58,802 bases of DNA, taken from positions 1 to 58,802 of the forward strand of contig CALWUW010000013.1 of the NCBI GenBank assembly GCA_944384815.1. The letters are read 5' to 3'. The DNA comes from an uncultured Clostridia bacterium (lineage in GTDB: Bacteria > Bacillota > Clostridia > Oscillospirales > Acutalibacteraceae). This document shows positions 2,087 through 42,568 of this stretch, in pieces (position 1 is the stretch's first letter; the number at the start of each line of letters is the position of its first letter). The notes under the pieces were generated by a model. It saw nothing but the letters and a program-made list of their open reading frames with translations, was not told the origin of the DNA and made no database searches. The position numbers were made by a program, and so were the translations under genes.

Positions 2087-2803
2087 ATGCAGGAAAGGAA
2101 CTGTGAAAATCCCGAAGGAGCGGAAAACAGCCCGAAGGTTATGAAAATCGGACCTTCCATGCTGGCGTCGGACTTTGCCCGTTTGGGGGAAGAGATCCAG
2201 AAAGTGGAAAAAGCAGGAGGGGACTGCATTCATCTGGACGTAATGGACGGCGTGTTTGTGCCCAATATCACCATGGGTCCCCCGGTGATCCGGGCTATGC
2301 GGCCGTACACCCAGCTGCCTTTTGACGTGCATCTGATGATAGAGGATCCGGAAGTATATGTGGAGCGGTTTGCCAAAGCGGGAGCGGACTGGCTCTCCTT
2401 TCATCTGGAAGCCAAGGGAGACCCGGCCCAGGTGATCCGGAAGATCCGGGAAGCCGGAATGCAGCCCGGTATCGCCCTGAAGCCGGCCACCCCAGTGGAA
2501 TCGGTATACCCCTATTTGAAAGATTTGTTTTTGGTTTTGGTGATGACAGTGGAGCCCGGGTTCGGCGGGCAGAAAATGATGGTGTCCATGCTGGAAAAGG
2601 TCCGCCTGTTGAAGGAAAAGGCCCGCAAGGAAAACCCGGCGCTTCTGGTGGAGATCGACGGCGGCGTAAACCGGGAAACTGTTTCCCTGGCCGCGGCGGC
2701 AGGGGTGGACATCTGCGTGGCCGGAACCGGGGTGTTCAAAGCGGAGGATCCGGCTTTGGAAGTGCGGATCCTGAAGCAGGGAGGCCTTGCCCCCCAGGCG
2801 TGA
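2087..2803 (+). CDS. rpe: Ribulose-phosphate 3-epimerase
   Basis: Interconverts D-ribulose 5-phosphate and D-xylulose 5-phosphate in the pentose phosphate pathway (cytoplasm, metal-dependent TIM barrel). Family signatures are intact: the SMLASDF strand near the N-terminus, HLDVMDG at 49-55 with metal His49 and catalytic Asp51, HLMIEDP (about 86), MTVEPGFGGQ at 153-162 and EIDGG with the second catalytic Asp at 191. The 238-residue length is slightly above the usual 215-220, because this start adds 18 residues before the conserved MKIGPSML; the strong GGGGGTG site favours the upstream ATG, but an internal start at 2141 is possible. It lies 44 nt upstream of the Rnf-like cluster. Confidence 0.95.
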   Translation: MQERNCENPEGAENSPKVMKIGPSMLASDFARLGEEIQKVEKAGGDCIHLDVMDGVFVPNITMGPPVIRAMRPYTQLPFDVHLMIEDPEVYVERFAKAGADWLSFHLEAKGDPAQVIRKIREAGMQPGIALKPATPVESVYPYLKDLFLVLVMTVEPGFGGQKMMVSMLEKVRLLKEKARKENPALLVEIDGGVNRETVSLAAAAGVDICVAGTGVFKAEDPALEVRILKQGGLAPQA

Positions 2804-2847: not shown

Positions 2848-4143
2848 GTGGTTTGGTCGCTGCGAAGAGGGATCCGTCAGGAAAAGCACAGACCCCGATC
2901 CCTGAAACAAGGAATTATTCCCCTGAAAGCGGAAAAGACCCTGCTGGTGCCTTTGTACGGCGGGGAAGAGAGCCGGGTTCGCCGGGTGCAGCCCGGGGAG
3001 CATGTGCGCCGGGGAGAAGCGCTGACCCAGCCGTCCCCGGAAGTGCCGGTTTCCTTTGCTCCGGTTTCCGGAAGAATCGTGGAGTTCCGGGCGGTGGAGC
3101 TTCCTTTGGACGGCACGGCCATGTGCGCCGTGCTGGAGCCGGATCCGGAAGAACAGGGGGATTCGAAAAAGAAGAAGGATAAACGAAAAGAGCTTTTCTC
3201 GGGAGAAAAACGGAGAAAGCCTCAAAGTCCTCCGGAGGAATCCCGGAAGGAGACGGTGGAAAAAGCCGCGGAGCAGATGGGCATTGTGGATGAGTTTGAC
3301 GGTATGCCCCTGCAGACCCTTCTGGAGAATTTTCGCCGGGGAGGGGGAAAGGTGCTGGTTTGCTGCGGGCTGGACGATGACCCCTATGGAGACAGCTCCG
3401 GCGCCGTGCTTCGGGAAATGCCCCGGGAGGCAGCCCGGGGGCTTCAGCTGGCGGCTTTGGCCTGCGGCGCGGAGAAAACCCTTTTGGCCGCTACCTCTTT
3501 TTATGGATGGAGAAAGGTGCGTATGGCCCAGACGGGCGTTCCGGTGACCTCCGCAGGAGGACGGACCCCGGCCAAGGGTCTTATGGCCCGGCGCCTGCGG
3601 CAGAAAAAGAAAAAAGCCGGATTCATCGGCGCCCAGGCCTGTGTGGCGTTGTGCCGGGCTGTGGAAGAAGGCGTTCCCGCGTTGGATACGGTGATCACCG
3701 TATCCGGAGACGGAGTGTGGCGGGCCGGGAATTTCCGGGTGCCTTTGGGGATGTCCCTGGAAGAGGTGCTGAGCCGCTGCGCTTTGTATCCGGATGTAAG
3801 CCTTGTATATGTAGGGGACGCTCTTTCCGGCAAAGCGGTAACGGATCTTTCCCTGCCTGTTACGGCCCGGACCCGGTGTGTTACGGTTTTGCGGAATCCC
3901 CCGGTCCACCGGGAGTTTTCCTGTATCGGCTGCGGCCGGTGCACCAGCGTGTGCGTTCGGGGGATCTATCCCTGGCTGGTGCACGACGCTTTGAATCGGG
4001 ACACGGTGGATCCCATGGTGCTTTGGAATGTGAATCGCTGTACCGGCTGCAAAGCCTGCACGGCGGCGTGCCCCGCCGGCATCGACCTGGCGGAGGAAGT
4101 AGCCCGGGCGGCTGCGATTCGGAAGAGCGGTGATTTTGATTGA
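2848..4143 (+). CDS. RnfC-like Fe-S subunit with altered flavin/NADH site
   Basis: In canonical Rnf complexes RnfC is the peripheral subunit that takes electrons from NADH through FMN and two [4Fe-4S] clusters. Seen here (431 aa, GTG start after AGAAAGGA): the N-terminal lipoyl-like half-domain, an SLBB-like region (about 280-325), and two intact clusters, Cys359/362/365/369 and Cys398/401/404/408. The first set lacks the usual Pro after its last Cys. Not seen: the GGAGFPT glycine loop and the GAECEPY motif of the FMN/NADH domain. At those places the protein has GMPLQTLLENF and CGLDDDPYGD (about residues 151-178). A Lys-rich linker (about 100-130) interrupts the N-terminal part. The gene is the first of four overlapping genes and ends inside the start of the rnfD-like gene. 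Membership of the family is sure; NADH oxidation by this protein is doubtful. Confidence 0.85.
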   Translation: MVWSLRRGIRQEKHRPRSLKQGIIPLKAEKTLLVPLYGGEESRVRRVQPGEHVRRGEALTQPSPEVPVSFAPVSGRIVEFRAVELPLDGTAMCAVLEPDPEEQGDSKKKKDKRKELFSGEKRRKPQSPPEESRKETVEKAAEQMGIVDEFDGMPLQTLLENFRRGGGKVLVCCGLDDDPYGDSSGAVLREMPREAARGLQLAALACGAEKTLLAATSFYGWRKVRMAQTGVPVTSAGGRTPAKGLMARRLRQKKKKAGFIGAQACVALCRAVEEGVPALDTVITVSGDGVWRAGNFRVPLGMSLEEVLSRCALYPDVSLVYVGDALSGKAVTDLSLPVTARTRCVTVLRNPPVHREFSCIGCGRCTSVCVRGIYPWLVHDALNRDTVDPMVLWNVNRCTGCKACTAACPAGIDLAEEVARAAAIRKSGDFD

Positions 4144-5126
4144 AGCTGATACAAGGAAAAGCTCCCTTTTATCGCAGGGAGCAGACCGTGATCACCATGA
4201 TGGACGACGTGGCGGCCTGTTTAGCGGCGCTTCTGGTGCTGCCGGTGTTGTATTACGGGCCCCGGCCGCTTTTTTCCGCGGCGGCGGGCTGTTTGGGAGG
4301 CTTTTTTGCTCAGGTGCTGTTCTGCCTGCTGCAAAGGCAGCGAATCAGCGTTTCCCAGCGTTCCGTTTTGGTAACCGGGCTTACAGCGGCTTTGCTGCTT
4401 CCCGGGGATGTGGATTTGTATATTCCCGCTTTAGCGGCGGCTTTCGGAATTTTTGTGGTTCGGGAGCCCTTCGGTTCTTTGGGAAGAAACACCTTTAACC
4501 CGGCGGCGGCAGGGGTGGCGTTTGTGACGGTGCTTTGGCCGGAAAAAGTGTTCCGGTTCCCCGGGGTGGATTTTCTTCCCCTTTGGGGAGAGGGAGTGGC
4601 AGCTTCCCGGGTAGAGGACCCCATGTCCATGCTGCAGCAGGGGCTGATCCCTCTTTTGCGGCCGGTGGACATGCTTTTGGGGCGCTATGCCGGCCCTCTG
4701 GGCAGTACGGCGGCGCTGGTGATCTGCGGCTGCGGCCTGTTTTTGTTTTTCCGGCGGACGGCTCGCTGGGAAATTACCGCCGGATTCTTGCTTTCGGCGG
4801 CGGCAGTGGCCTTTTTCTTTCCCCGGGCGCCCTATGCCCCGGAAATTTCCGTGGCCTATGAATTGCTGACAGGCTCCCTTTTGTTCGCAGGGGTATTTAT
4901 GATGACGGACCCGGTCACCTCTCCTCGTATGGCCGGCCCCCGGTTTGTGTACGGCCTTTTGGGAGGAGGGCTGGCCATGCTGCTCCGGCATGTGGGAGCC
5001 TATGAGGAAGGAGTCTGCTTTGCGGTGCTCCTTTCCAACGCGGCGGCGCCTTTGCTGGACCGGGCAGGGCTTTGGATTCGGACGAAAGGAGTGGTGTTCC
5101 GTGGAAAGACCTTCCGCGCCCGTTAA
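4140..5126 (+). CDS. RnfD-like membrane subunit lacking the flavin-accepting Thr
   Basis: RnfD/NqrB is a polytopic membrane subunit that carries FMN covalently bound to a Thr in an SGAT motif. This 328-residue homologue has about eight to nine hydrophobic segments, the conserved GRNTFNPAAAGVAF segment (about 118-131) and the late FMMTDPVTSPR motif (about 260), so the fold is kept. Where SGATPL is expected, just before the LLLGRYAGPLGSTAAL segment, it reads RVEDPMSML (residues 157-165): the acceptor Thr corresponds to Asp160. The start is a TTG that overlaps the stop of the upstream gene (TTGA); a later start is possible but would cut the conserved N-terminus. It overlaps the next gene by 26 nt, so the four genes are translationally linked. 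Confidence 0.85.
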   Translation: MKLIQGKAPFYRREQTVITMMDDVAACLAALLVLPVLYYGPRPLFSAAAGCLGGFFAQVLFCLLQRQRISVSQRSVLVTGLTAALLLPGDVDLYIPALAAAFGIFVVREPFGSLGRNTFNPAAAGVAFVTVLWPEKVFRFPGVDFLPLWGEGVAASRVEDPMSMLQQGLIPLLRPVDMLLGRYAGPLGSTAALVICGCGLFLFFRRTARWEITAGFLLSAAAVAFFFPRAPYAPEISVAYELLTGSLLFAGVFMMTDPVTSPRMAGPRFVYGLLGGGLAMLLRHVGAYEEGVCFAVLLSNAAAPLLDRAGLWIRTKGVVFRGKTFRAR

Positions 5127-5811
5127 AAACAATGGCACTAAAGCTGCCAAAACTGCCAAAGCCACCAAAATCCCCTACCGGGAGCGGCAGAAAAAGCGGC
5201 GGGAGCTGCGCCGGATCTTTTTAAACGGCGTGCTGTTTAAAAACCCCATGCTGGTAGGCGCCTTGGGAATGTTCCCTCTGGTGACCTGCACTACCCTGAA
5301 AAACGCTCTGGAGCTTTCCTTTTTGCTTTTGGTGATTTCTATTCCGGTGAATGTGGTGCTTTGCTATACGGGAAACTTGGTGCCCGGCTGGGTGCGTCCG
5401 GCCTGGGCGACGGCGATTTCTCTGGCGGTGTATGCCCCGGCTTCCATTTGGATGGATAGTCTTTTCCCCGGATCGGTACAGTCCCTGGGAATGGCAGCGG
5501 CGCTGATGGCCGTGAATTCCATGGTGCTGTCCCGGGCCAATGAATATGCCCCGGCTCACATTTTTTCCGCTGTGATAGCGGATACCTTGGGCTGTACGTT
5601 AGGGGGAGCAATGGTGCTTTGCCTGACGGCGGTCCTCCGGGAATGGATCACCTACGGGGATGTGGGTATGCGCACCATGACGCTGTTCCGGGGCAAGGGG
5701 ATTTCTCTTCCCTTCTTTGGATTTTTGATTCTGGGTTTTCTGGCGGCAGGCGTGCAGCACATCAACCGCCGGCGTTCCCAGCCTAAGGGAAAGAAGGTGA
5801 ACCGGCTGTGA
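5101..5811 (+). CDS. RnfE-like membrane subunit lacking cluster cysteines
   Basis: RnfE/NqrD pairs with RnfA/NqrE in the membrane; together they hold a [2Fe-2S] cluster with two Cys from each. This 236-residue protein keeps the family frame (NPMLVGALGMFPLVTCTT in the first helix; AVNSMVLSRANEYA in a later helix), with six hydrophobic segments. The first ligand Cys of LGLCP is Phe58, and the Cys of VNC is Ser140. A Cys does occur at 62, four residues past the usual place. The N-terminus is a basic extension whose codons form drifting 9-bp repeats (units like aaagctgcc, aaaactgcc, aaagccacc). The GTG start at 5101 is chosen because AAAGGAG lies 10 nt upstream; there is no better in-frame start before the first helix. 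Confidence 0.85.
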   Translation: MERPSAPVKNNGTKAAKTAKATKIPYRERQKKRRELRRIFLNGVLFKNPMLVGALGMFPLVTCTTLKNALELSFLLLVISIPVNVVLCYTGNLVPGWVRPAWATAISLAVYAPASIWMDSLFPGSVQSLGMAAALMAVNSMVLSRANEYAPAHIFSAVIADTLGCTLGGAMVLCLTAVLREWITYGDVGMRTMTLFRGKGISLPFFGFLILGFLAAGVQHINRRRSQPKGKKVNRL

Positions 5812-6410
5812 GTGATTTCGGAACTTGGTTCCCCCAAATTATCACCTATGTGCTGCTGGCTCTTTCCGGGGAAAGCATTTTGTTTTCCGGAGCGGGAGGA
5901 TTCAGCCGGGCGCTGCGGGCGGCCCGCCGGCCGGCGCTGCTGCGGCGGTATTCGGTTTTGGTGGGATGTTTCTCCCTGTTTACCATTTCCCTTTCTTGCT
6001 GGCTGGATCCGTGGCTTTCCGGCCTGCCCCGGCCTACGGAAAGCCGGGTGGCGGTGATTTTAGGGGCGGATCTTCTGCTGTATCTGCTGGCAGCGTGGCT
6101 GCTAAGGCGGTTCTGCCCGGGCTTTTGGGAGAAAACGGAGAAGGTGTTTTCTCCGGCGGCCATCAACACCATAGTGCTGGCCATGCCCTTTCTGCAAAGA
6201 TACCTGAAGCTGACTTGGCCCCAGGCCATAGGATACGCTGTGGGAACGGGGCTGGCATTCTGGCTGGGAGCGCAGCTTTTAAACACGGCTTTGCGCCGGG
6301 CCAGCCATAAGGAAACTCCGGCGGCTTATAAGGGTCTGCCGGCGGCGCTTTTATACATAGGCATCCTGTGCCTGGCGTTTTACGGGTTTACAGGAGGCAG
6401 ATTTATTTGA
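5808..6410 (+). CDS. RnfA-like membrane subunit lacking cluster cysteines
   Basis: A 200-residue polytopic protein, the expected length for RnfA, with six hydrophobic segments. It starts at a GTG overlapping the previous stop by 4 nt (GTGA). The first helix, which in RnfA reads NNFVLVxFLGLCPF, is here ALSGESILFSGAGGFSRAL (18-36) with no Cys. The VNCAVLG helix is INTIVLAMP, with Thr121 in place of Cys. Overall similarity is weaker than for the other three subunits, and the assignment rests on gene order, length, topology and the NT/NC helix. A terminator follows, closing the cluster without rnfG or rnfB. A structural role, or an ion-conducting role without redox chemistry, is possible but unproven. 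Confidence 0.75.
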   Translation: MSDFGTWFPQIITYVLLALSGESILFSGAGGFSRALRAARRPALLRRYSVLVGCFSLFTISLSCWLDPWLSGLPRPTESRVAVILGADLLLYLLAAWLLRRFCPGFWEKTEKVFSPAAINTIVLAMPFLQRYLKLTWPQAIGYAVGTGLAFWLGAQLLNTALRRASHKETPAAYKGLPAALLYIGILCLAFYGFTGGRFI

Positions 6411-6417
6411 GAGGAAT

Positions 6418-6452
6418 GGGCCTCTTCCGAAAGGAAGGGGCTTTTTCTTTTG
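6418..6452 (+). terminator. Intrinsic terminator after the Rnf-like cluster
   Basis: GGGCCTCTTCC, GAAA loop, GGAAGGGGCTT, then TTTCTTTT. The stem is 11 bp with wobble pairs. Confidence 0.8.
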
Positions 6453-6543
6453 TTTTCGGCTCCTTTCCGTTGCTTGAAAAAAGGGGAGGAAAACGAAAAT
6501 TACCATACAGCGGGCGTTTTGCCCCAAGAAAGGATGAAATACC

Positions 6544-7662
6544 ATGAAAGAATTCAAGATCGTACCCACCATCCGGATGTACCCCACAGTGAAAGAATTT
6601 TTGGAGGATACCCATCCGGGAAAAGGGGATCTTCTGCTCACCAACCGCTTCCTGTGGGAAAACTATTTTCAGGGAAGTACGGAGGAAGTTCGGGTGCTGT
6701 TTTACGAAGATTACGCTTCCGGGGAGCCTTCCGATGAAATGGTGGACGCCATGTATGAAAGCCTGAAGGGGGAGCAATTTTCCCGGGTATGGGGCGTGGG
6801 AGGAGGTTCCGTGCTGGATACCGCCAAGATCCTTTCCCTGAAAGGGGAAGAAAGCACGGCGCAGCTTTTCGCCACTCCGGCGCCCCTGCCCAAAAGCCGG
6901 GAGCTGCTTTTGGTGCCCACCACCTGCGGCACCGGCAGCGAAATGACCAATATCGCCATTTTGGAGATCCGCTCCCTGCGGACGAAAAAAGGTCTGGCCT
7001 GGGACAGCTTATACGGGGATCAGGCGGTTTTGATCCCGGAGCTGGTGAAGGGCTTGCCTTTCCCCGTATTCGGAACCAGCTCCATCGACGCGTTGGTGCA
7101 TGGGGTGGAATCCTATCTTTCTCCCAAGGCAAGTCCCCTTTCCCGGATGTACTCCCGGGAGACCATTGAAAAGATCCTGAAGGGCTACCGGCGGATCCGC
7201 GAAGAAGGAAAGCAGGTGCTGGCAGAAACAGCCGGGGAATTCCTTCTGGCGGCGGCTTACGGCGGTATTGCCTTCGGAAACGCCGGATGCGGACCGGTGC
7301 ACGCTTTAAGCTACCCCCTGGGGGCTGTGCACCATGTGCCCCATGGAGAAGCCAATTACGCCATGTTTACGGAAGTGCTGCGGGTCTATGAGGAAAAAGA
7401 TCCCCAGGGGGAAACCCTGAAGGAGCTGAAAACCCTTCTTTCGGAGCTTCTGGAAACGAAGGAGGATGTGTACACGGCTTTGGAAGAGCTGCTAAACGGC
7501 ATCGTGGAGAAAAAGCCCCTTGCCGCGTATGGCGTCACCGGCGGGGAACTGGAAGACTTCACCCAGGCGGTGATGACCCAGCAGGGGCGGCTGATGGCCA
7601 ACGCCTATGTGCCTCTGGATGAAAAGGACGTGGCGGGTATTTACCGGCGGCTCTGGAAATAA
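6544..7662 (+). CDS. 4hbD: 4-Hydroxybutyrate dehydrogenase (iron-dependent ADH family)
   Basis: Expected to interconvert succinate semialdehyde and 4-hydroxybutyrate with NAD(P)H, a step in clostridial succinate or GABA conversion to butyrate. The 372-residue length and sequence follow the C. kluyveri 4HbD pattern along the whole chain: N-terminal GKGDLLLTNRFLW, GGGS dinucleotide loop at 86-89, PTTCGTGSEMTN (125-136), SSIDALVHGVE, and the HALSYPLG / HHVPHGEANY helices that supply metal-binding His residues. The ATG at 6544 is preceded by AAGGATG. The gene sits alone between two terminators; its place beside an Rnf-like cluster suggests shared redox context, but the terminator at 6418-6452 separates them. 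Substrate choice is inferred from family likeness. Confidence 0.88.
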   Translation: MKEFKIVPTIRMYPTVKEFLEDTHPGKGDLLLTNRFLWENYFQGSTEEVRVLFYEDYASGEPSDEMVDAMYESLKGEQFSRVWGVGGGSVLDTAKILSLKGEESTAQLFATPAPLPKSRELLLVPTTCGTGSEMTNIAILEIRSLRTKKGLAWDSLYGDQAVLIPELVKGLPFPVFGTSSIDALVHGVESYLSPKASPLSRMYSRETIEKILKGYRRIREEGKQVLAETAGEFLLAAAYGGIAFGNAGCGPVHALSYPLGAVHHVPHGEANYAMFTEVLRVYEEKDPQGETLKELKTLLSELLETKEDVYTALEELLNGIVEKKPLAAYGVTGGELEDFTQAVMTQQGRLMANAYVPLDEKDVAGIYRRLWK

Positions 7663-7679
7663 CCTGCGAAATCAAAAAA

Positions 7680-7718
7680 GAAGCCTGCTCCGGCAGAACC
7701 GGAACAGGCTTCTTTTTA
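7680..7718. terminator. Bidirectional terminator between convergent genes
   Basis: GAAGCCTG-C-TCCGG (7680-7693) pairs with CCGGA-A-CAGGCTTC (7699-7712), flanked by A-run and T-run, so it can stop transcription from both sides. Confidence 0.9.
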
Positions 7719-7741
7719 TAGCCCGCCAGAGGGCGTAAAAA

Positions 7742-8239
7742 TCAATATCCCAGGGCTTTCAGCAAAGCGTCCGCAGGGGCTCGTTTGTCCGAAGACCCGG
7801 AAGCGTAGATGGTGATATTTTCCATACGCACCAAGACGCCGAAAGCGCCGCCGCCTTCCATGCTGGTTTTATTGAAGGTGGAGGAATCCACGGAAGTATG
7901 GGAGCCGCCACTCAGATCCCATTTGGAAAGGGTGGTGTGATAAAACGCCAGGGAATCCTGGGAGTTTTCAAACTCCACAAAATAAACCGTGCAGCCGCCT
8001 TCTTCCGTAGCGGTGAGATAGGTTTGCAGGGAGGAATAGGTGGAATAGCCGGAAGTGGTATCCGTTACGGTGAAGCCGTTATCCTCCGCGGCTTTGGTGA
8101 AGGTATCCACCGTGGCGGTGCGCTTGGCGGAACAGCCGGGGAGAAGGAAGCTCAAAAGCAAAACCCCCACCAGGAAAAGAGAGTGCAGCTTGCGGTGGGA
8201 AGAATGGGAACAGCCGGCAAAAGTGGAAAAGCCTATCAT
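7742..8239 (-). CDS. Small hypothetical lipoprotein
   Basis: A 165-residue secreted lipoprotein. The hydrophobic stretch HSLFLVGVLLLSFLLPGC (about 19-36) ends in the lipobox LPGC, after which a Ser/Thr-rich globular domain follows. The start ATG at 8239 is preferred to one 19 codons upstream because AAAGGA lies 9 nt before it. The mature part contains two Phe/Tyr-rich strands and a helix at the end, but no family is recognised. It is convergent with the 4-hydroxybutyrate dehydrogenase gene, divergent from the aminopeptidase gene, and monocistronic. It may be a surface sensor or binding lipoprotein; nothing in the sequence says which. Confidence 0.75.
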   Translation of the reverse strand: MIGFSTFAGCSHSSHRKLHSLFLVGVLLLSFLLPGCSAKRTATVDTFTKAAEDNGFTVTDTTSGYSTYSSLQTYLTATEEGGCTVYFVEFENSQDSLAFYHTTLSKWDLSGGSHTSVDSSTFNKTSMEGGGAFGVLVRMENITIYASGSSDKRAPADALLKALGY

Positions 8240-8509
8240 AAAAAACATCCTTTCTTTGATTGGAGAATAAAGGCCAGGCGGTAAACAAAAAAACAAATCG
8301 ACAAATAAAAGCGCAACAGGTAAAAAGGTAAAAAGGCTAAAAGGTTGACAAAAACGCAGCCCTTATGGTTCGACCCAAAGTCTCCTCTTAATGGTACTTT
8401 TTTTTGGAGGGAAAGTCAATCCCCGTTTGGAGGCTTTTGTGAAAGAGGAAAAGGCAGGAGAAGAAGCTTCCTGCAAGGGAGAAATTTTAAAAAAACCCGG
8501 ATTCTCCGC

Positions 8510-8538
8510 TTGTAGAATTCTCAAGGAAGGACTATAAT
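8510..8538 (+). promoter_or_regulatory. Sigma-A-type promoter for the first M24 peptidase
   Basis: TTGTAG (8510-8515), 17-bp spacer, TATAAT (8533-8538). The stretch 8240-8509 holds the upstream region of the lipoprotein gene and a short drifting repeat (aggtaaaa/aggtaaaa/aggctaaa at 8318-8345); nothing else is seen. Confidence 0.75.
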
Positions 8539-8641
8539 AGAGCGGAAGGCAAAGAAGAATGGATGGCTTTGCCGGCAGCCGGAGGGGAAGGGAACCGCCC
8601 TTAAGCCGCTCCGGGAAGAAAGAACGAGTGGAGGTAATACA

Positions 8642-9892
8642 ATGACAAGAGAATTCCATTTGGGAAACCGGAACCGGCTGTATGACCGGCTGAAGAAAAA
8701 TTCCGTAGTGGTGCTGTTTTCCGGAAAGCTCACCAGAAAAACCGCGGATGAATATTATCCGTTCTGGGTGGACAGAAACTTTTTGTATCTCACAGGCCTG
8801 CGGAAGGAAGGGCTGGTGCTGGTAGCGGAGATCTCCGAGACCGATGTGAAAGAGACCTTGTATCTCCTGCCCCCCAACGACCGTCTGGAAAAATGGACTG
8901 GCGCCCGGGTAAAGCCCTGGGAAGTGGACGAGATTTCCGGCATCGCCAATTCCAAATACATTGAGACTCTGGAGAACGATCTGCACAGAATTTTTCTCTC
9001 GGGACATTATGAGAACCTCTATCTGGATATGAATCGCCTGACCCCGGACGAGCCGGACAGCGAGGCGTACGCCCTGTGCAAGAAAGTGCAGAACATCTAT
9101 CCCTTTATGACGGTGAAAAGCGTCACCAACGATATCCGCGCTCTGCGTGTGATCAAGCAGCCCTGCGAGATCGAGGCCATGAAGAAAGCCGAGGAGATCA
9201 CTACTGCCGGCATCAAGGCCATGATGCACGCTTCCAAGCCCGGTATGTTTGAATACCAGTATAAGGCTGTTTGGGATTATACTTTGGAGCAGTACGGTCC
9301 GGAAGGCCCGGCGTTCCCCTCTATCATCAGCGCCGGCAAAAACAATTTCTGCATCCACTATTATGCCTATACCGGCCAGGCCATGGACGGCGATATGATC
9401 CTTAACGACGTAGGCGCTATGTGGGACGACCATATGACGGACGTTTCCAGAGGCTGGCCCTGCAACGGAAAATTCTCCGACCGGCAGAAGCAGATCTATG
9501 AGTGCGTATACGCCACTTCCAACCATATGTTTGATATTATCAAACCCGGTATGCCCATGATGGATGTGGACGCCACCATCCGCCGCTACAACTACGAGCG
9601 GATGAAGGATGCCGGCATTGTGGACAAGTGGGAAGACATCGGCAAGTATATGTGGCACGGCGGCGCCCACCATGTGGGATATGACGTGCACGACGAGGTG
9701 CTGGTTCCCGAAAAGATTCAGCCCGGCATGGTATTCTGCGTGGATATCGGCGTGTACCACGAAGAGTGGGGCATCGGCTTCCGTCTGGAAGATAACTGCC
9801 TGGTTACCGAGGACGGCTGCGTGAACCTTTCCGCTGCTACGCCTCGCAGCATCCAGGAGATCGAGGACGAGATGAAGAAGAAGGTATTCTAA
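8642..9892 (+). CDS. M24B aminopeptidase P-like protein with one altered metal ligand
   Basis: Aminopeptidase P/Xaa-Pro enzymes remove the N-terminal residue before proline using two metal ions bound by Asp-Asp-His-Glu-Glu. This 416-residue protein has the N-terminal creatinase-like domain (to about 165) and a pita-bread domain. Ligands seen are the two Asp of NDVGAMW...MTDVSR, spaced 11 residues as usual, the His of HHVGYDVHD, and the last Glu of RLEDN. The fourth ligand, normally Glu in VEPGxY, is Asp368 in CVDIGVY, and the Pro after it is Ile. The substrate-side HYTEN loop is HYYAYTG. Catalysis with an Asp ligand is plausible but altered. A second, canonical M24 gene lies at 13710. ATG is preceded by GGAGGTAAT. 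Confidence 0.85.
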   Translation: MTREFHLGNRNRLYDRLKKNSVVVLFSGKLTRKTADEYYPFWVDRNFLYLTGLRKEGLVLVAEISETDVKETLYLLPPNDRLEKWTGARVKPWEVDEISGIANSKYIETLENDLHRIFLSGHYENLYLDMNRLTPDEPDSEAYALCKKVQNIYPFMTVKSVTNDIRALRVIKQPCEIEAMKKAEEITTAGIKAMMHASKPGMFEYQYKAVWDYTLEQYGPEGPAFPSIISAGKNNFCIHYYAYTGQAMDGDMILNDVGAMWDDHMTDVSRGWPCNGKFSDRQKQIYECVYATSNHMFDIIKPGMPMMDVDATIRRYNYERMKDAGIVDKWEDIGKYMWHGGAHHVGYDVHDEVLVPEKIQPGMVFCVDIGVYHEEWGIGFRLEDNCLVTEDGCVNLSAATPRSIQEIEDEMKKKVF

Positions 9893-9931
9893 GAGAGATC
9901 CGGAATACCTGGGTGTTTGGATACCGCAATC

Positions 9932-9972
9932 AAAACCGGCGCCGGAGGGAAAACCTCCGACGCCGGTTTTTT
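9932..9972 (+). terminator. Intrinsic terminator after the M24 peptidase gene
   Basis: AAAACCGGCG and GGAGG pair with CCTCC and CGCCGGTTTT around a GAAAA loop, followed by TTTTTTC. Confidence 0.9.
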
Positions 9973-10018
9973 CGGCTTTTCGTTTTTTATCTCATAAAAT
10001 TATAAGCAGACAAAAGAA

Positions 10019-10050
10019 AGAAGGCGGGCTAAAAGCCCGCCTTCTGTTTT
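10019..10050. terminator. Second, bidirectional terminator
   Basis: AGAAGGCGGGCT, AAA loop, AGCCCGCCTTCT, then GTTTTT on + and CTTTCTTTTG on -. It can also serve the GH127 gene read from the other strand. Confidence 0.8.
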
Positions 10051-10130
10051 TGAATCCATTTTTTGAATCCGTTGTTTAAATCCGCTGCTTGAAAGGGAAA
10101 ATATCCGCTGAAACAAGGGCTCCCGCAGCT

Positions 10131-10172
10131 TATGCCGTGTTACGTGTTACGTATTACGTATTACGCCATACG
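10131..10172. repeat. Drifting tandem repeat at a gene end (ttacgtg/ttacgta units)
   Basis: Four to five copies of a 9-bp ttacgtgtt/ttacgtatt unit run into the last codons of the GH127 gene. Confidence 0.5.
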
Positions 10173-13100
10173 GATCTTGAAGTATACGTGATACCCCACT
10201 TCGTGAGCCGCATACATGGGAACGAAGGTGAGACCCTGGCTTTCCAGAACCGGCATATCGCCCTTGTGGGAAACCGTAAAGGAAGCGGAAAGATCCGGCT
10301 TCAAAACCAGCGTCTTGGTTTCCGTATCCTCGGAAAGCGCCACCATAACCAGCGGCCCGTACAGCACACTGGCCACCGGCAGCCCCTCGGGGGAAGCGTC
10401 CTGGGTAGGAGCCAGATGCAGGCTGTAAGGCGTATGCACGGTGATCACGTCGCCGTCGGCGAAGTCCCCTTCCAGGGAAACATAGCCGGAACCGTCGGGC
10501 AGGGCCTGGCCGGCGGAGGTTTCTACACGGAAGGTATCTTTGCACCACTGGGGCACACGCAGGTGCAGACGGAAATGCCCGCCGCCCTGTACCTTCAGGG
10601 TGTACGTCTCACCGGGGAATGCGCCGGAAAGCTCCAGAGTGGTGTTCTTTTCCTTCCAGTGGAAATGGGAAGGAATATACAGGTTCACATACAGATCCTC
10701 TCCGGAATCGGAGGTGAAGTAAATGGCCTGCTGGTATTTTACGTGGTTTTCCATGCCCGTGCCGTGGCAGCAGGTGAAATCATGATAGTCGTTGCTGTAT
10801 CCTCTGTGAGCGCCGGGGCCAATGGGCAGCATATAAGTAACGCCGTGGTGGGCGTCCTCTGTCTCATGGGGATTGATGGAAGCCACGATCTGGTTCAAAA
10901 GGGTGCGCTCGTAATAATCCATATAGTAGGAAGCGTCGGGATCATAGGCGTAAAGGCCCAGCGTCAGCTTCAGCATATTATAGGCCGCGCAGGTTTCGCA
11001 GTTCCGATCGGAATCGATGTTTCCGGCCAGAATATCCGGCTCCTTGAACACTTCGCCCCGGCCTACGCCGCCGATGGAATAGGCGTAGTGGCCGGTGACC
11101 AGATGCCAGAAGTTCCGGGCCATGCGGAAATATTTTTTATCTCCGGTGGCGGCGTAGGTTTCCAGCGCGCCGATGATCTGGGGAATGTGCTGGTTGGCGT
11201 GCAGGCCGGAAATGGTATCATGGTTCTCAATGAGGCCGTCAAACAGCTTGGGATTGTAGAACATATCCGCCGTCTCCAGATATTCCTTCTTGCCTGTCAG
11301 GCGATAGAGGGAAGCCATGGACTCGTTGAATCCGCCGTATTCACCGGCAATATACATGCTCCACATCTGGGAACGCTGCTCCTGGGTGCAGGCGGAAAGC
11401 CGGCGATAGACCCAGGTGCCGATGCCTTCGGCAATGGCCAGAGCCTTCTCGCTTCCGGCCAGACGGTAGCAGTCCAGCAGGCCGGCCAGGATCTTATGCA
11501 GGGTGTAGTAAGGCGCCCAGATGGTGGCGTAGGGGGTGAACTGCTCCAGAAGGGCAAACTGATCCGGAGAATACGCGCTCAGGAAGCCCCGGCCCCAGGT
11601 CTTGGGATCCTTGCTCCAGAAGGACTGCGCCGCGCTGGAAGGCGTGCAGGCGGTGACAAAGGCTTCCGGATCGCCTTCCGCCATGGACTGCAGATCCGCC
11701 AGCTCTTCCACCATGTAATCCAGCTTTTCTTTCAGGAAGCTGTCATGGGAAGAGGAATAGGCCAAAGCCAGAGCGGAAAGGAAGTGGCCGGTGGAATGGC
11801 CGCGGAGCAGGCCCATGGGCTCATCCCAGCCTCCGGGAGGAACAGCGCCCTTGGTGTCCCGGCCAAAGGTGGCCCGGAAATTATAGAGCATACGGTCCGC
11901 GTCCAGCATACGCAGGTAGCGCAGACCCTGATGATACCGGTCAGTAAGAACGTTTTCCGATTCCAGGGAAGCTTCTTCCAAAGAAGCAAAGGAGCCCTGG
12001 GTCTCCGGAGCGCCGTCCTGGGCTACGGTGACTTCCCCGCGGAAGGAAACCGTGGGATATTCCGGGCAGGAAGCGGAAACGGAGAAGCTGCCGGGCGCCT
12101 GCAGTTTTTCTTCCGGGATGGATTCCCAGCGCAGGAAAGCCAGAACAGGGTCCCCTCCCTGGACATGGAGCGCCGCAAAGGGAGGAAGAATGGGCTGGCA
12201 GCCCGGAGCGGTCACCGCCTGAACGGAAATCTCGCTTTCTTCAATAATTACAGGATAGTGCCGCAGCACACAGGCGGGGAATTCCCGGCTCTGGGAAGCG
12301 CCGCCGAAGGAAGCGGTAAGCTTTAAGGTAAAGGAAACATCCTGCTCCGCCGGGCGGGTGACCTTTCCTTCTGCGGAAAATACAGAGGGATCGGAGCTTT
12401 CCCAGGTGAAGACGGTTCCGTTTTCGCCCTTGGTGGGAAGAGAAAGGTCTTCCACCAAAGCGGAAAGATCCGGCAGCACCAGCGCCTGAAGATCCATTTC
12501 CACCACCTGCTGATCCGTAGGCATGGCGGGAACAACCACCGGGAAGGCCCGGTCCAGAGAAGCGTCTTCATAAGAGAGGGTGGCGGTGAGAGTCACGGCC
12601 TCGTCGGGAGAAAGGGGAGCCGGGCGGCAAACGGTGCCTTCCGGAGAAAGGACCTGGGGCTTGTCCGAGCTCCAGGTGATCCGGGAGCCGTAAGCACCCC
12701 GAGCCGGCAGCGCAATGGACTTTTCCGCCGCAGCGGGCATACCCTCGGCCAGAGCCTGAGCGTCCGCTTCTACACGACCGGAAGCGGGGATCCGGAACAG
12801 ATCCTGCACTTCTTCCTGAGAAAAAGCCGTGGGATAAATGGCAATATCCGCAAAACGTACGTTGGAGGGCATCTGGGCAAACAGACCGTAGCCGAAAACG
12901 CAGTCCTTAGCGTCTGCCAGATGGGAAGGAAGGATCTTCAGCTTTTCCAGGGACGTCTGCAGAGAGCCGTCCACATAGCAGGCCAGAACGCCGTCTTCCG
13001 AATGGGTAACCGTGACCATATACCAGCGATTCAGGAAAATGGAGCAGCCTTCTTCCGGGCAGCGCTCCTGAGAACGGCCGCCGGTGGTCACACAGGGGAC

Positions 13101-42444: not shown

Positions 42445-42560
42445 GTCGGTGTTGATGACGGTGAGGGTCCACCTGTTCCCATCCCGAACACAGAAGTTAA
42501 GCTCACTGGTGCCGAAGATACTTGGCTGGCAACGGCCTGGGACAATAGGAAGACGCCGAC
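42445..42560 (+). rRNA. rrf: 5S ribosomal RNA
   Basis: The 116-nt gene contains the conserved 5S core GGTCCACCTGTTCCCATCCC followed by GAACACAGAAGTTAAGC, and the terminal helix closes: GTCGGTGT at the 5' end pairs with ACGCCGAC at the 3' end. It has its own promoter and terminator and no 16S, 23S or tRNA gene beside it, so it is a free-standing copy. Confidence 0.95.
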
Positions 42561-42568
42561 ATCAAAAG

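What the first reader, a model, noticed from the sequence alone, without database searches (positions are those of the whole stretch)
5101..6410. Cysteines of the membrane [2Fe-2S] cluster are replaced in both RnfE-like and RnfA-like proteins
In Rnf and Nqr, two Cys from each of the paired subunits hold a [2Fe-2S] cluster in the middle of the membrane. Here the RnfE-like protein has Phe58 for the Cys of LGLCP and Ser140 for the Cys of VNC. The RnfA-like protein has no Cys in its first helix and Thr121 for the second Cys. The neighbouring Asn and Arg are kept. The loss is paired in both subunits, which argues for an evolved loss and not random decay.
Basis: partly seen in the sequence, partly recalled or inferred. 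Interest (0 to 1): 0.85.

Follow-up and report, generated by a model that had tools for sequence, protein, structure and literature searches.

The report
Rnf relative stripped of its cofactors
Some Clostridia carry a second, conserved copy of the membrane core of a bacterial electron-driven ion pump in which most electron-carrying sites have been lost, which suggests that a redox pump was remade into something that works without electron transfer through the membrane.

Summary
At the four positions that hold the membrane [2Fe-2S] cluster of Rnf/Nqr, the window has Ser33 and Thr121 (RnfA-like) and Phe58 and Ser140 (RnfE-like). This is a conserved trait of a paralogous gene set. In the window's family, 69 of 69 RnfA/E-like pairs keep at most 2 of 4 ligand Cys (28 keep none); 9 of 9 canonical pairs keep four. 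Also lost: RnfG, RnfB, the FMN-bearing Thr of RnfD (replaced in 66 of 69) and the FMN/NADH motif of RnfC (37 of 37). RnfC keeps its eight [4Fe-4S] Cys (37 of 37) but is missing from 28 of 63 loci with room for it. The genes are under purifying selection, separate from canonical Rnf in a quick tree, usually lie beside rpe, and occur in 10 of 73 genomes where no canonical-grade RnfA/E was found. RnfA Asn112 (Na+ contact in Rnf simulations) is kept in 73 of 73, RnfE Arg67 in 62 of 69. Best reading: a cofactor-poor RnfD/E/A core acting as an alternating-access ion or solute transporter. The loss is shown; transport is inferred. A possibly similar rnfDEA operon of Faecalibacterium duncaniae is described in print as part of an NADH:ferredoxin oxidoreductase.

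The parts
2087..2803 (+). rpe, ribulose-phosphate 3-epimerase; neighbour of the complex in most relatives and the only rpe found in this genome
   Evidence: TIGR01163 262.8 bits; single PF00834 hit in G000; adjacency counts
2848..4143 (+). RnfC-like subunit: RnfC_N, SLBB and two [4Fe-4S] motifs; canonical FMN/NADH motif GGAGFP replaced (D-EFDG)
3922..4071 (+). eight Cys (C359, C362, C365, C369, C398, C401, C404, C408) for two [4Fe-4S] clusters, invariant in 18 of 18 aligned paralogs
4140..5126 (+). RnfD-like membrane subunit
   Evidence: PF03116 232.7 bits; PDB alignment to 7zc6_D
4617..4619 (+). Asp160 of RnfD-like at the column of the flavinylated Thr (A. woodii T156)
5085..5091 (+). likely ribosome-binding site AAAGGAG for the RnfE-like gene
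   Evidence: read
5101..5811 (+). RnfE-like membrane subunit, GTG start
5272..5274 (+). Phe58 at the first RnfE cluster Cys
5518..5520 (+). Ser140 at the second RnfE cluster Cys
5808..6410 (+). RnfA-like membrane subunit, overlaps the end of the RnfE-like gene
   Evidence: the paralog profile matches RnfA over its full length
5904..5906 (+). Ser33 at the first RnfA cluster Cys
6165..6167 (+). Asn120 (A. woodii RnfA N112), Asn in 73 of 73 paralogs
6168..6170 (+). Thr121 at the second RnfA cluster Cys

Best explanation
The window holds a derived Rnf paralog (rpe-linked rnfCDEA). Shown: it has lost the four Cys of the RnfA/E [2Fe-2S] cluster, the FMN-bearing Thr of RnfD, the RnfG and RnfB subunits and the FMN/NADH motif of RnfC, while D, E and A stay together in relatives under purifying selection. 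Inferred: the RnfA/E dimer, which in Rnf is proposed to move Na+ by alternating access around the cluster, still switches between inward- and outward-open states, but the trigger is no longer the redox state of a cluster. In most relatives small polar residues (Ser, Thr, Asn) now lie at the former cluster site, so the core would act as an ion-gradient-driven ion or solute transporter. Where RnfC is present, its two [4Fe-4S] clusters would be a cytoplasmic gate or sensor; where it is absent, D, E and A work alone.
For: Cluster Cys: 0-2 of 4 in 69 of 69 paralog pairs (28 with none, 39 with one, 2 with two), against 4 of 4 in 9 of 9 canonical pairs of the same family; 0-1 of 4 in 18 of 18 pairs read from other families of the order. 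RnfD Thr156 kept in 3 of 69; GGAGFP of RnfC kept in 0 of 37, its eight [4Fe-4S] Cys in 37 of 37. No RnfG or RnfB match beside the paralog clusters (sought by phmmer with the window genome's own RnfG and RnfB, which found both in 9 of 9 canonical loci); the only FMN_bind match in the window's genome is the canonical rnfG. RnfC absent from 28 of 63 D-E-A loci with room; in 34 genomes of that type the best RnfC match had 218.5 bits or less, against 395-425 in three genomes with a paralog RnfC. G077 and G188 have D, E, A but only short Fe-S matches for RnfC and no canonical-grade RnfA/E. Ion-path residues kept: RnfA N112 73 of 73 (one of two invariant columns among 45 paralogs), RnfE R67 62 of 69, RnfE L103 61 of 69; N112 contacts Na+ in simulations and R67A and L103G leave about a tenth of the activity in A. 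woodii Rnf (PMC11889175, passages). dN/dS 0.04-0.17 in 17 of 18 comparisons of near pairs. Paralogs are one side of a branch, SH-aLRT 100, in a quick tree of 96 rows.
Against: No transport has been shown and no substrate is indicated. Other Na+-path residues are not kept: RnfA T110 is Ala in 64 of 73, T111 is a bulky hydrophobic or aromatic residue in all 73, E88 is Glu in none of 73, RnfE E115 is Glu in 25 of 69 and Asn in the window. The window's RnfA-like protein has Arg next to the former first Cys, which would not favour a cation there. The 37 RnfC-containing sets keep both [4Fe-4S] motifs, so a redox role there is plausible. RnfD of the window's congener G031 has Thr at the flavinylation column. 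Both AlphaFold models had low confidence (pLDDT about 50), so the fold rests on sequence only.
Confidence: 0.5

Rival explanations
1. A membrane-anchored redox or Fe-S sensor and regulator: RnfC's two [4Fe-4S] clusters sense the cytoplasm and D/E/A only anchor or relay the signal, perhaps to the neighbouring metabolic enzyme Rpe.
For: Eight Cys of RnfC kept in 37 of 37; rpe beside the cluster in 59 of 73 loci of the family and 14 of 14 fetched from other families.
Against: RnfC is missing from 28 of 63 loci with room while D, E and A remain; its presence changes 9 times on the quick tree, a count that includes sets cut by contig ends. An anchor would not need three polytopic subunits with conserved ion-path residues. 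rpe occurs in 190 of 200 genomes, so it does not depend on the complex.
Confidence: 0.2
2. Still an electron carrier, but by another route: RnfC [4Fe-4S] to riboflavin (and perhaps a Ser-linked FMN) in RnfD, with electrons leaving to an unknown partner.
For: RnfC keeps both clusters; the Asp that I match to the riboflavin ligand D249 of A. woodii RnfD is kept in 53 of 69 and in the window. One canonical RnfD (L117) has Ser at the flavinylation position, so Ser is not proof of loss, and three paralogs keep Thr. ApbE is present in 8 of 10 paralog-only genomes.
Against: The (S/T)xAT context is lost in most paralogs and the window has Asp there; no RnfG or RnfB beside the clusters; the type without RnfC has no Fe-S subunit in its cluster; G170 and G195 have the paralog but no ApbE match.
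Confidence: 0.15
3. An accessory or assembly factor that borrows subunits from the canonical Rnf of the same cell.
For: 63 of 73 paralog genomes also have a canonical-grade PF02508 match (rows compared), and the window's genome has a full apbE-rnfCDGEAB set.
Against: 10 of 73 have none of that grade, including G103 (99% complete, 2 contigs), G051, G170, G188 and G090 (97-99% complete).
Confidence: 0.06
4. Decaying gene copies without function.
For: The paralogs evolve faster than most canonical genes and RnfC has been lost repeatedly.
Against: D, E and A are found together in 69 of 73 loci; of the other four, one has E and A at a contig edge, one has A at a contig edge and two have A alone with room. 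dN/dS well below 1; invariant Asn; spread over several families of the order.
Confidence: 0.02

Closest known systems
Rnf complex (ferredoxin:NAD+ oxidoreductase, RnfCDGEAB), structures 9eri (A. woodii) and 7zc6 (C. tetanomorphum)
   Same: Homologous C, D, E, A subunits in the same relative order; RnfC [4Fe-4S] motifs; Asn and Arg of the RnfA/E ion path
   Different: No RnfG or RnfB; [2Fe-2S] Cys lost; FMN-bearing Thr of RnfD replaced; FMN/NADH motif of RnfC replaced; beside rpe
Na+-NQR (NqrABCDEF)
   Same: NqrB, NqrD, NqrE are the homologues of D, E, A
   Different: No NqrC or NqrF in the cluster; scores far below the nqr equivalog cut-offs
NQR/RNF-like systems of Meheust et al. 2021 (PMC8238504, passages)
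   Same: Partial Rnf/Nqr gene sets built around an RnfD/NqrB-type protein
   Different: Those join RnfD/NqrB to an NqrF-type domain in a flavinylation cluster; the window's RnfD-like protein has PF03116 only and no FMN_bind protein lies near it
rnfDEA operon CG447_09840-830 of Faecalibacterium duncaniae A2-165 (PMC10781979, passages)
   Same: Gene content D-E-A beside a separate rnfCDGEAB, as in many paralog genomes here
   Different: Named there as one of two putative rnf operons of an NADH:ferredoxin oxidoreductase; its sequence could not be fetched, so identity with this family is not tested

Membership tests
Rnf complex | RnfC, RnfD, RnfE and RnfA homologues | tested here: met
   PF13375, PF03116, PF02508 twice; TIGR01945/01946/01948/01943 matched but below their curated cut-offs
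Rnf complex | Four Cys of RnfA/RnfE for the membrane [2Fe-2S] cluster | tested here: not met
   S, T, F, S in the window
Rnf complex | RnfG with covalent FMN | tested here: not met
   absent from the cluster; the genome's only FMN_bind match is in the canonical operon
Rnf complex | RnfB ferredoxin-type subunit | tested here: not met
   absent from the cluster
Rnf complex | Flavinylated Thr of RnfD | tested here: not met
   Asp160 in the window; Ser in 63, Thr in 3, Asp in 2, Asn in 1 of 69 paralogs; canonical Thr in 7, Ser in 1 of 8
Rnf complex | FMN/NADH motif of RnfC (GGAGFP; its role is recalled) | tested here: not met
   replaced in the window and in 37 of 37 paralogs
Rnf complex | Two [4Fe-4S] motifs of RnfC | tested here: met
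Rnf complex | Ferredoxin:NAD+ oxidoreductase activity coupled to ion pumping | not testable with these tools
   needs biochemistry
Na+-NQR | NqrC and NqrF subunits in the gene set | tested here: not met
   the genes next to the four are rpe and an Fe-alcohol dehydrogenase
NQR/RNF-like (Meheust 2021) | RnfD/NqrB-NqrF (PF00175) fusion in a flavinylation cluster | tested here: not met
   the RnfD-like protein has PF03116 only; no FMN_bind near

The most novel reading that the evidence does not exclude
A redox-driven ion pump has been converted into an alternating-access transporter that needs no membrane cofactors: the RnfD/E/A core, freed of its electron carriers, works as a secondary ion or solute transporter whose gate is set by RnfC-type Fe-S proteins or by other means, in step with the pentose phosphate enzyme Rpe.
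Probability: 0.4. Interest if true: 0.88.

Novelty: new variant of a known kind. Interest (0 to 1): 0.72.

Why it matters
How Rnf and Nqr couple electron flow to Na+ movement is debated: through RnfA/E around the cluster, or through RnfD/NqrB (PMC11889175, passages). A natural, conserved core without the cluster Cys and mostly without the flavin-bearing Thr separates the ion-moving part from the electron-moving part and could be tested directly. It also bears on annotation: the four proteins match rnf family models, and in at least one gut commensal a similar gene set is counted as an energy-conserving NADH:ferredoxin oxidoreductase, which would be unlikely if it belongs to this family.

Tried and rejected
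Structure prediction of the RnfA-like and RnfE-like proteins with three-row alignments gave pLDDT about 50; no fold search was run on them. Rfam search of 30 relatives' loci and the window found no RNA family in the rnf-like clusters; a TPP riboswitch lies about 5 kb downstream in one locus (L057), the other matches being tRNAs, a T-box, a 6S RNA and a 5S rRNA away from them. A conserved upstream neighbour of rpe was looked for and not found: the commonest family occurs in 12 of 73. A link between the complex and the presence of rpe was tested and rejected: rpe is in 190 of 200 genomes. An ApbE test meant to settle RnfD flavinylation was mixed: 8 of 10 paralog-only genomes have ApbE. A try to recognise Faecalibacterium among 27 genomes by a 16S probe matched none, so the link to F. 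duncaniae stays untested. Papers PMC11456536 and PMC10215811 (passages) speak of rnfCDEAB, not of this set.

Limits of the counts: one search drew 200 genomes of the family; I fetched 80 of its matches: the 70 at E up to 3.7e-10 besides the window's own, and 10 weaker ones, of which 2 were paralogs and 8 canonical. The remaining weak matches were not checked one by one, so 73 paralog genomes of 200 is a lower bound. Of the order and phylum searches only the returned loci L123-L178 were read. The tree is a quick one and three rows are flagged as long. ORFs in the scripts run from stop to stop, so starts are not exact.

Full report
What is in the window. Genes on the + strand: rpe 2087-2803, RnfC-like 2848-4143, RnfD-like 4140-5126, RnfE-like 5101-5811, RnfA-like 5808-6410, then an iron-type alcohol dehydrogenase 6544-7662. 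No RnfG and no RnfB gene lies there. The same genome has a second, canonical operon on another contig (C12, about 33.2-40.3 kb): apbE and rnfC, D, G, E, A, B. The window set is therefore a paralog.

The four positions. In Rnf of A. woodii the [2Fe-2S] cluster is held by C25 and C113 of RnfA and C25 and C108 of RnfE (PMC11889175, passages). The window has Ser33, Thr121, Phe58 and Ser140 there. PDB-sequence alignments made by a different program place the same residues for RnfE and Ser/Thr for the RnfA paralog profile.

A family of such sets. The RnfA-like protein was searched in 200 genomes of the same family; 80 of the matches were fetched with flanks. Counting the window, 73 loci in 73 genomes are of the paralog type; the other 8 fetched loci, and the genome's own C12 operon, are canonical. 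Of 69 paralog loci with both RnfA and RnfE aligned, 28 keep none of the four Cys, 39 keep one and 2 keep two; 9 of 9 canonical pairs keep four. The Cys kept is most often the first of RnfE (37 of 69). No paralog has a Cys within three residues of all four columns. A profile of 45 paralogs (A1) was run over 295 genomes of the order and 398 of the phylum. Of the loci returned, 18 from other families of the order (L133-L150) are paralogs with 0-1 Cys. Of the 28 loci L151-L178, from the order and the wider phylum, 26 are CCCC; two canonical-type sets with RnfG and RnfB show partial loss (GCCG in G217, CCCA in G846). Within what was read, the paralog was seen in this order only.

Other cofactor sites. 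Across 69 paralog RnfD proteins the flavinylated Thr is Ser in 63, Thr in 3, Asp in 2 (the window is one) and Asn in 1; among 8 canonical ones it is Thr in 7 and Ser in 1. One of the three paralogs with Thr is the window's congener G031. Because one canonical protein has Ser, Ser alone does not prove loss of FMN; the window's Asp does argue for it. Across 37 paralog RnfC proteins the GGAGFP motif is gone in all, and the eight Cys of two [4Fe-4S] clusters are kept in all. RnfC itself is missing from 28 of 63 D-E-A loci of the family with room for it upstream, and from 11 of 14 loci fetched from other families. A profile of paralog RnfC run over 34 genomes without it gave best matches of 218.5 bits or less, against 395-425 in three genomes that have it. 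Where I compared places the best match lay in the canonical operon; not every genome was compared.

Selection and ancestry. Nelson-Gojobori dN/dS for five near pairs of paralog genomes is 0.04-0.17 in 17 of 18 gene comparisons and 0.33 in one (RnfE with its long tail, G009-G142). Window against G031 gives 0.21, 0.16 and 0.31 for C, D and E, with A saturated. Canonical genes give 0.014-0.048 for G031-G155 (B saturated) and 0.033-0.17 for G000-G031. dS is mostly near or above 1, so these are rough. In a quick tree of D+E+A from 83 paralog and 13 canonical sets, the paralogs are one side of a branch (SH-aLRT 100); the root is not inferred. Presence of RnfC changes 9 times among paralogs, with L048, L056, L062 and L093 lying near contig ends.

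Independence from canonical Rnf. In the same 200 genomes, 10 of the 73 paralog genomes have no PF02508 match of canonical strength (best E weaker than 1e-30): G103, G051, G170, G157, G077, G188, G164, G195, G111, G090. G103 is 99% complete in 2 contigs; G111 and G164 are 80% and 87% complete and weigh less. G077 and G188 have D, E, A, only short Fe-S matches for RnfC, and no canonical-grade RnfA/E. So the set does not need the canonical complex.

What is kept. RnfA N112 (window Asn120) is Asn in 73 of 73, RnfE R67 in 62 of 69, RnfE L103 in 61 of 69, the Arg of the RnfE IRE motif in 67 of 69. In A. woodii the N112 side chain and the L103 and V106 backbones stabilise Na+ in simulations, and R67A and L103G leave about a tenth of the oxidoreductase activity (PMC11889175, passages). 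Against this, T110, T111 and E88 of RnfA are not kept, and E115 of RnfE in only 25 of 69.

Neighbourhood. rpe lies within 1.5 kb upstream on the same strand in 59 of 73 loci of the family; of the other 14, 8 end too near a contig edge to tell and 6 lack it. It does so in 14 of 14 paralog loci fetched from other families. None of 15 canonical loci has it in the stretch fetched. The commonest family upstream of rpe occurs in 12 of 73. rpe is in 190 of 200 genomes and single in the window's genome, so it is a housekeeping gene; the tie may be ancestral gene order as much as function. In 32 loci a gene of one family, MecA in the three members scanned, lies on the other strand between rpe and the rnf-like genes.

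How it most likely works. Shown: loss of the membrane electron path; maintenance of D, E and A. Inferred: RnfA/E still moves an ion or solute by alternating access; polar side chains replace the cluster in most relatives; RnfC, where present, gates. I hold the loss of the cluster at about 0.97 and this mechanism at 0.5.

Literature. Seven searches listed no paper whose title or abstract start told of a redox-less Rnf paralog; the library lacks most subscription journals and all bioRxiv preprints. One paper names an rnfDEA operon beside rnfCDGEAB in Faecalibacterium duncaniae and assigns both to the NADH:ferredoxin oxidoreductase (PMC10781979, passages). Its sequence could not be obtained here. 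The C. [quoted passage not shown] The evolution paper PMC4014512 and the review PMC12174285 were seen in passages only and those passages tell of no such paralog.

Taxonomy. The two named relatives found are titled uncultured Clostridia bacterium. The order is not named by the tools; Oscillospirales would be a guess from memory.

Noticed in passing
L195 (G217:C9) 6170-11642: A full rnfCDGEAB-type set in another family of the order in which RnfA and RnfE each seem to lack one cluster Cys (GCCG); the RnfA site reads FGCGSFFG, so a one-residue alignment shift is possible.
   Followed up: partly
L197 (G846:C1) 3358-8434: A full rnfCDGEAB-type set in a genome of the same phylum whose RnfE has Ala for the second cluster Cys.
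   Followed up: partly
L069 4884-6974: RnfE-like protein of 697 aa with a long repetitive KKTTRKRTTKKA-type C-terminal tail; other sets without RnfC also have charged tails on RnfE.
   Followed up: no
L085 8457-9068, L107 3155-3793, L059 6279-6881: MecA-family (Clp adaptor) gene on the opposite strand between rpe and the rnf-like genes; this gene family is there in 32 loci.
   Followed up: partly
L092 4950-5738: A CAP-domain protein gene lies between the RnfD-like and RnfE-like genes in two genomes of one genus (L092, L095).
   Followed up: no
L097 6998-7651, L103 6968-7561: RnfA-like paralog found with no D or E match within the 7 kb fetched on each side, in two genomes of one genus, though each genome has four PF02508 matches.
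   Followed up: no
L108 7574-8824: DUF4015 (putative glycosyl hydrolase domain) protein downstream of the RnfA-like gene; its family occurs in 22 of 73 loci, one member scanned.
   Followed up: no
window 42445-42561 +: A 5S rRNA gene, the only Rfam match in the window at the gathering threshold.
   Followed up: no
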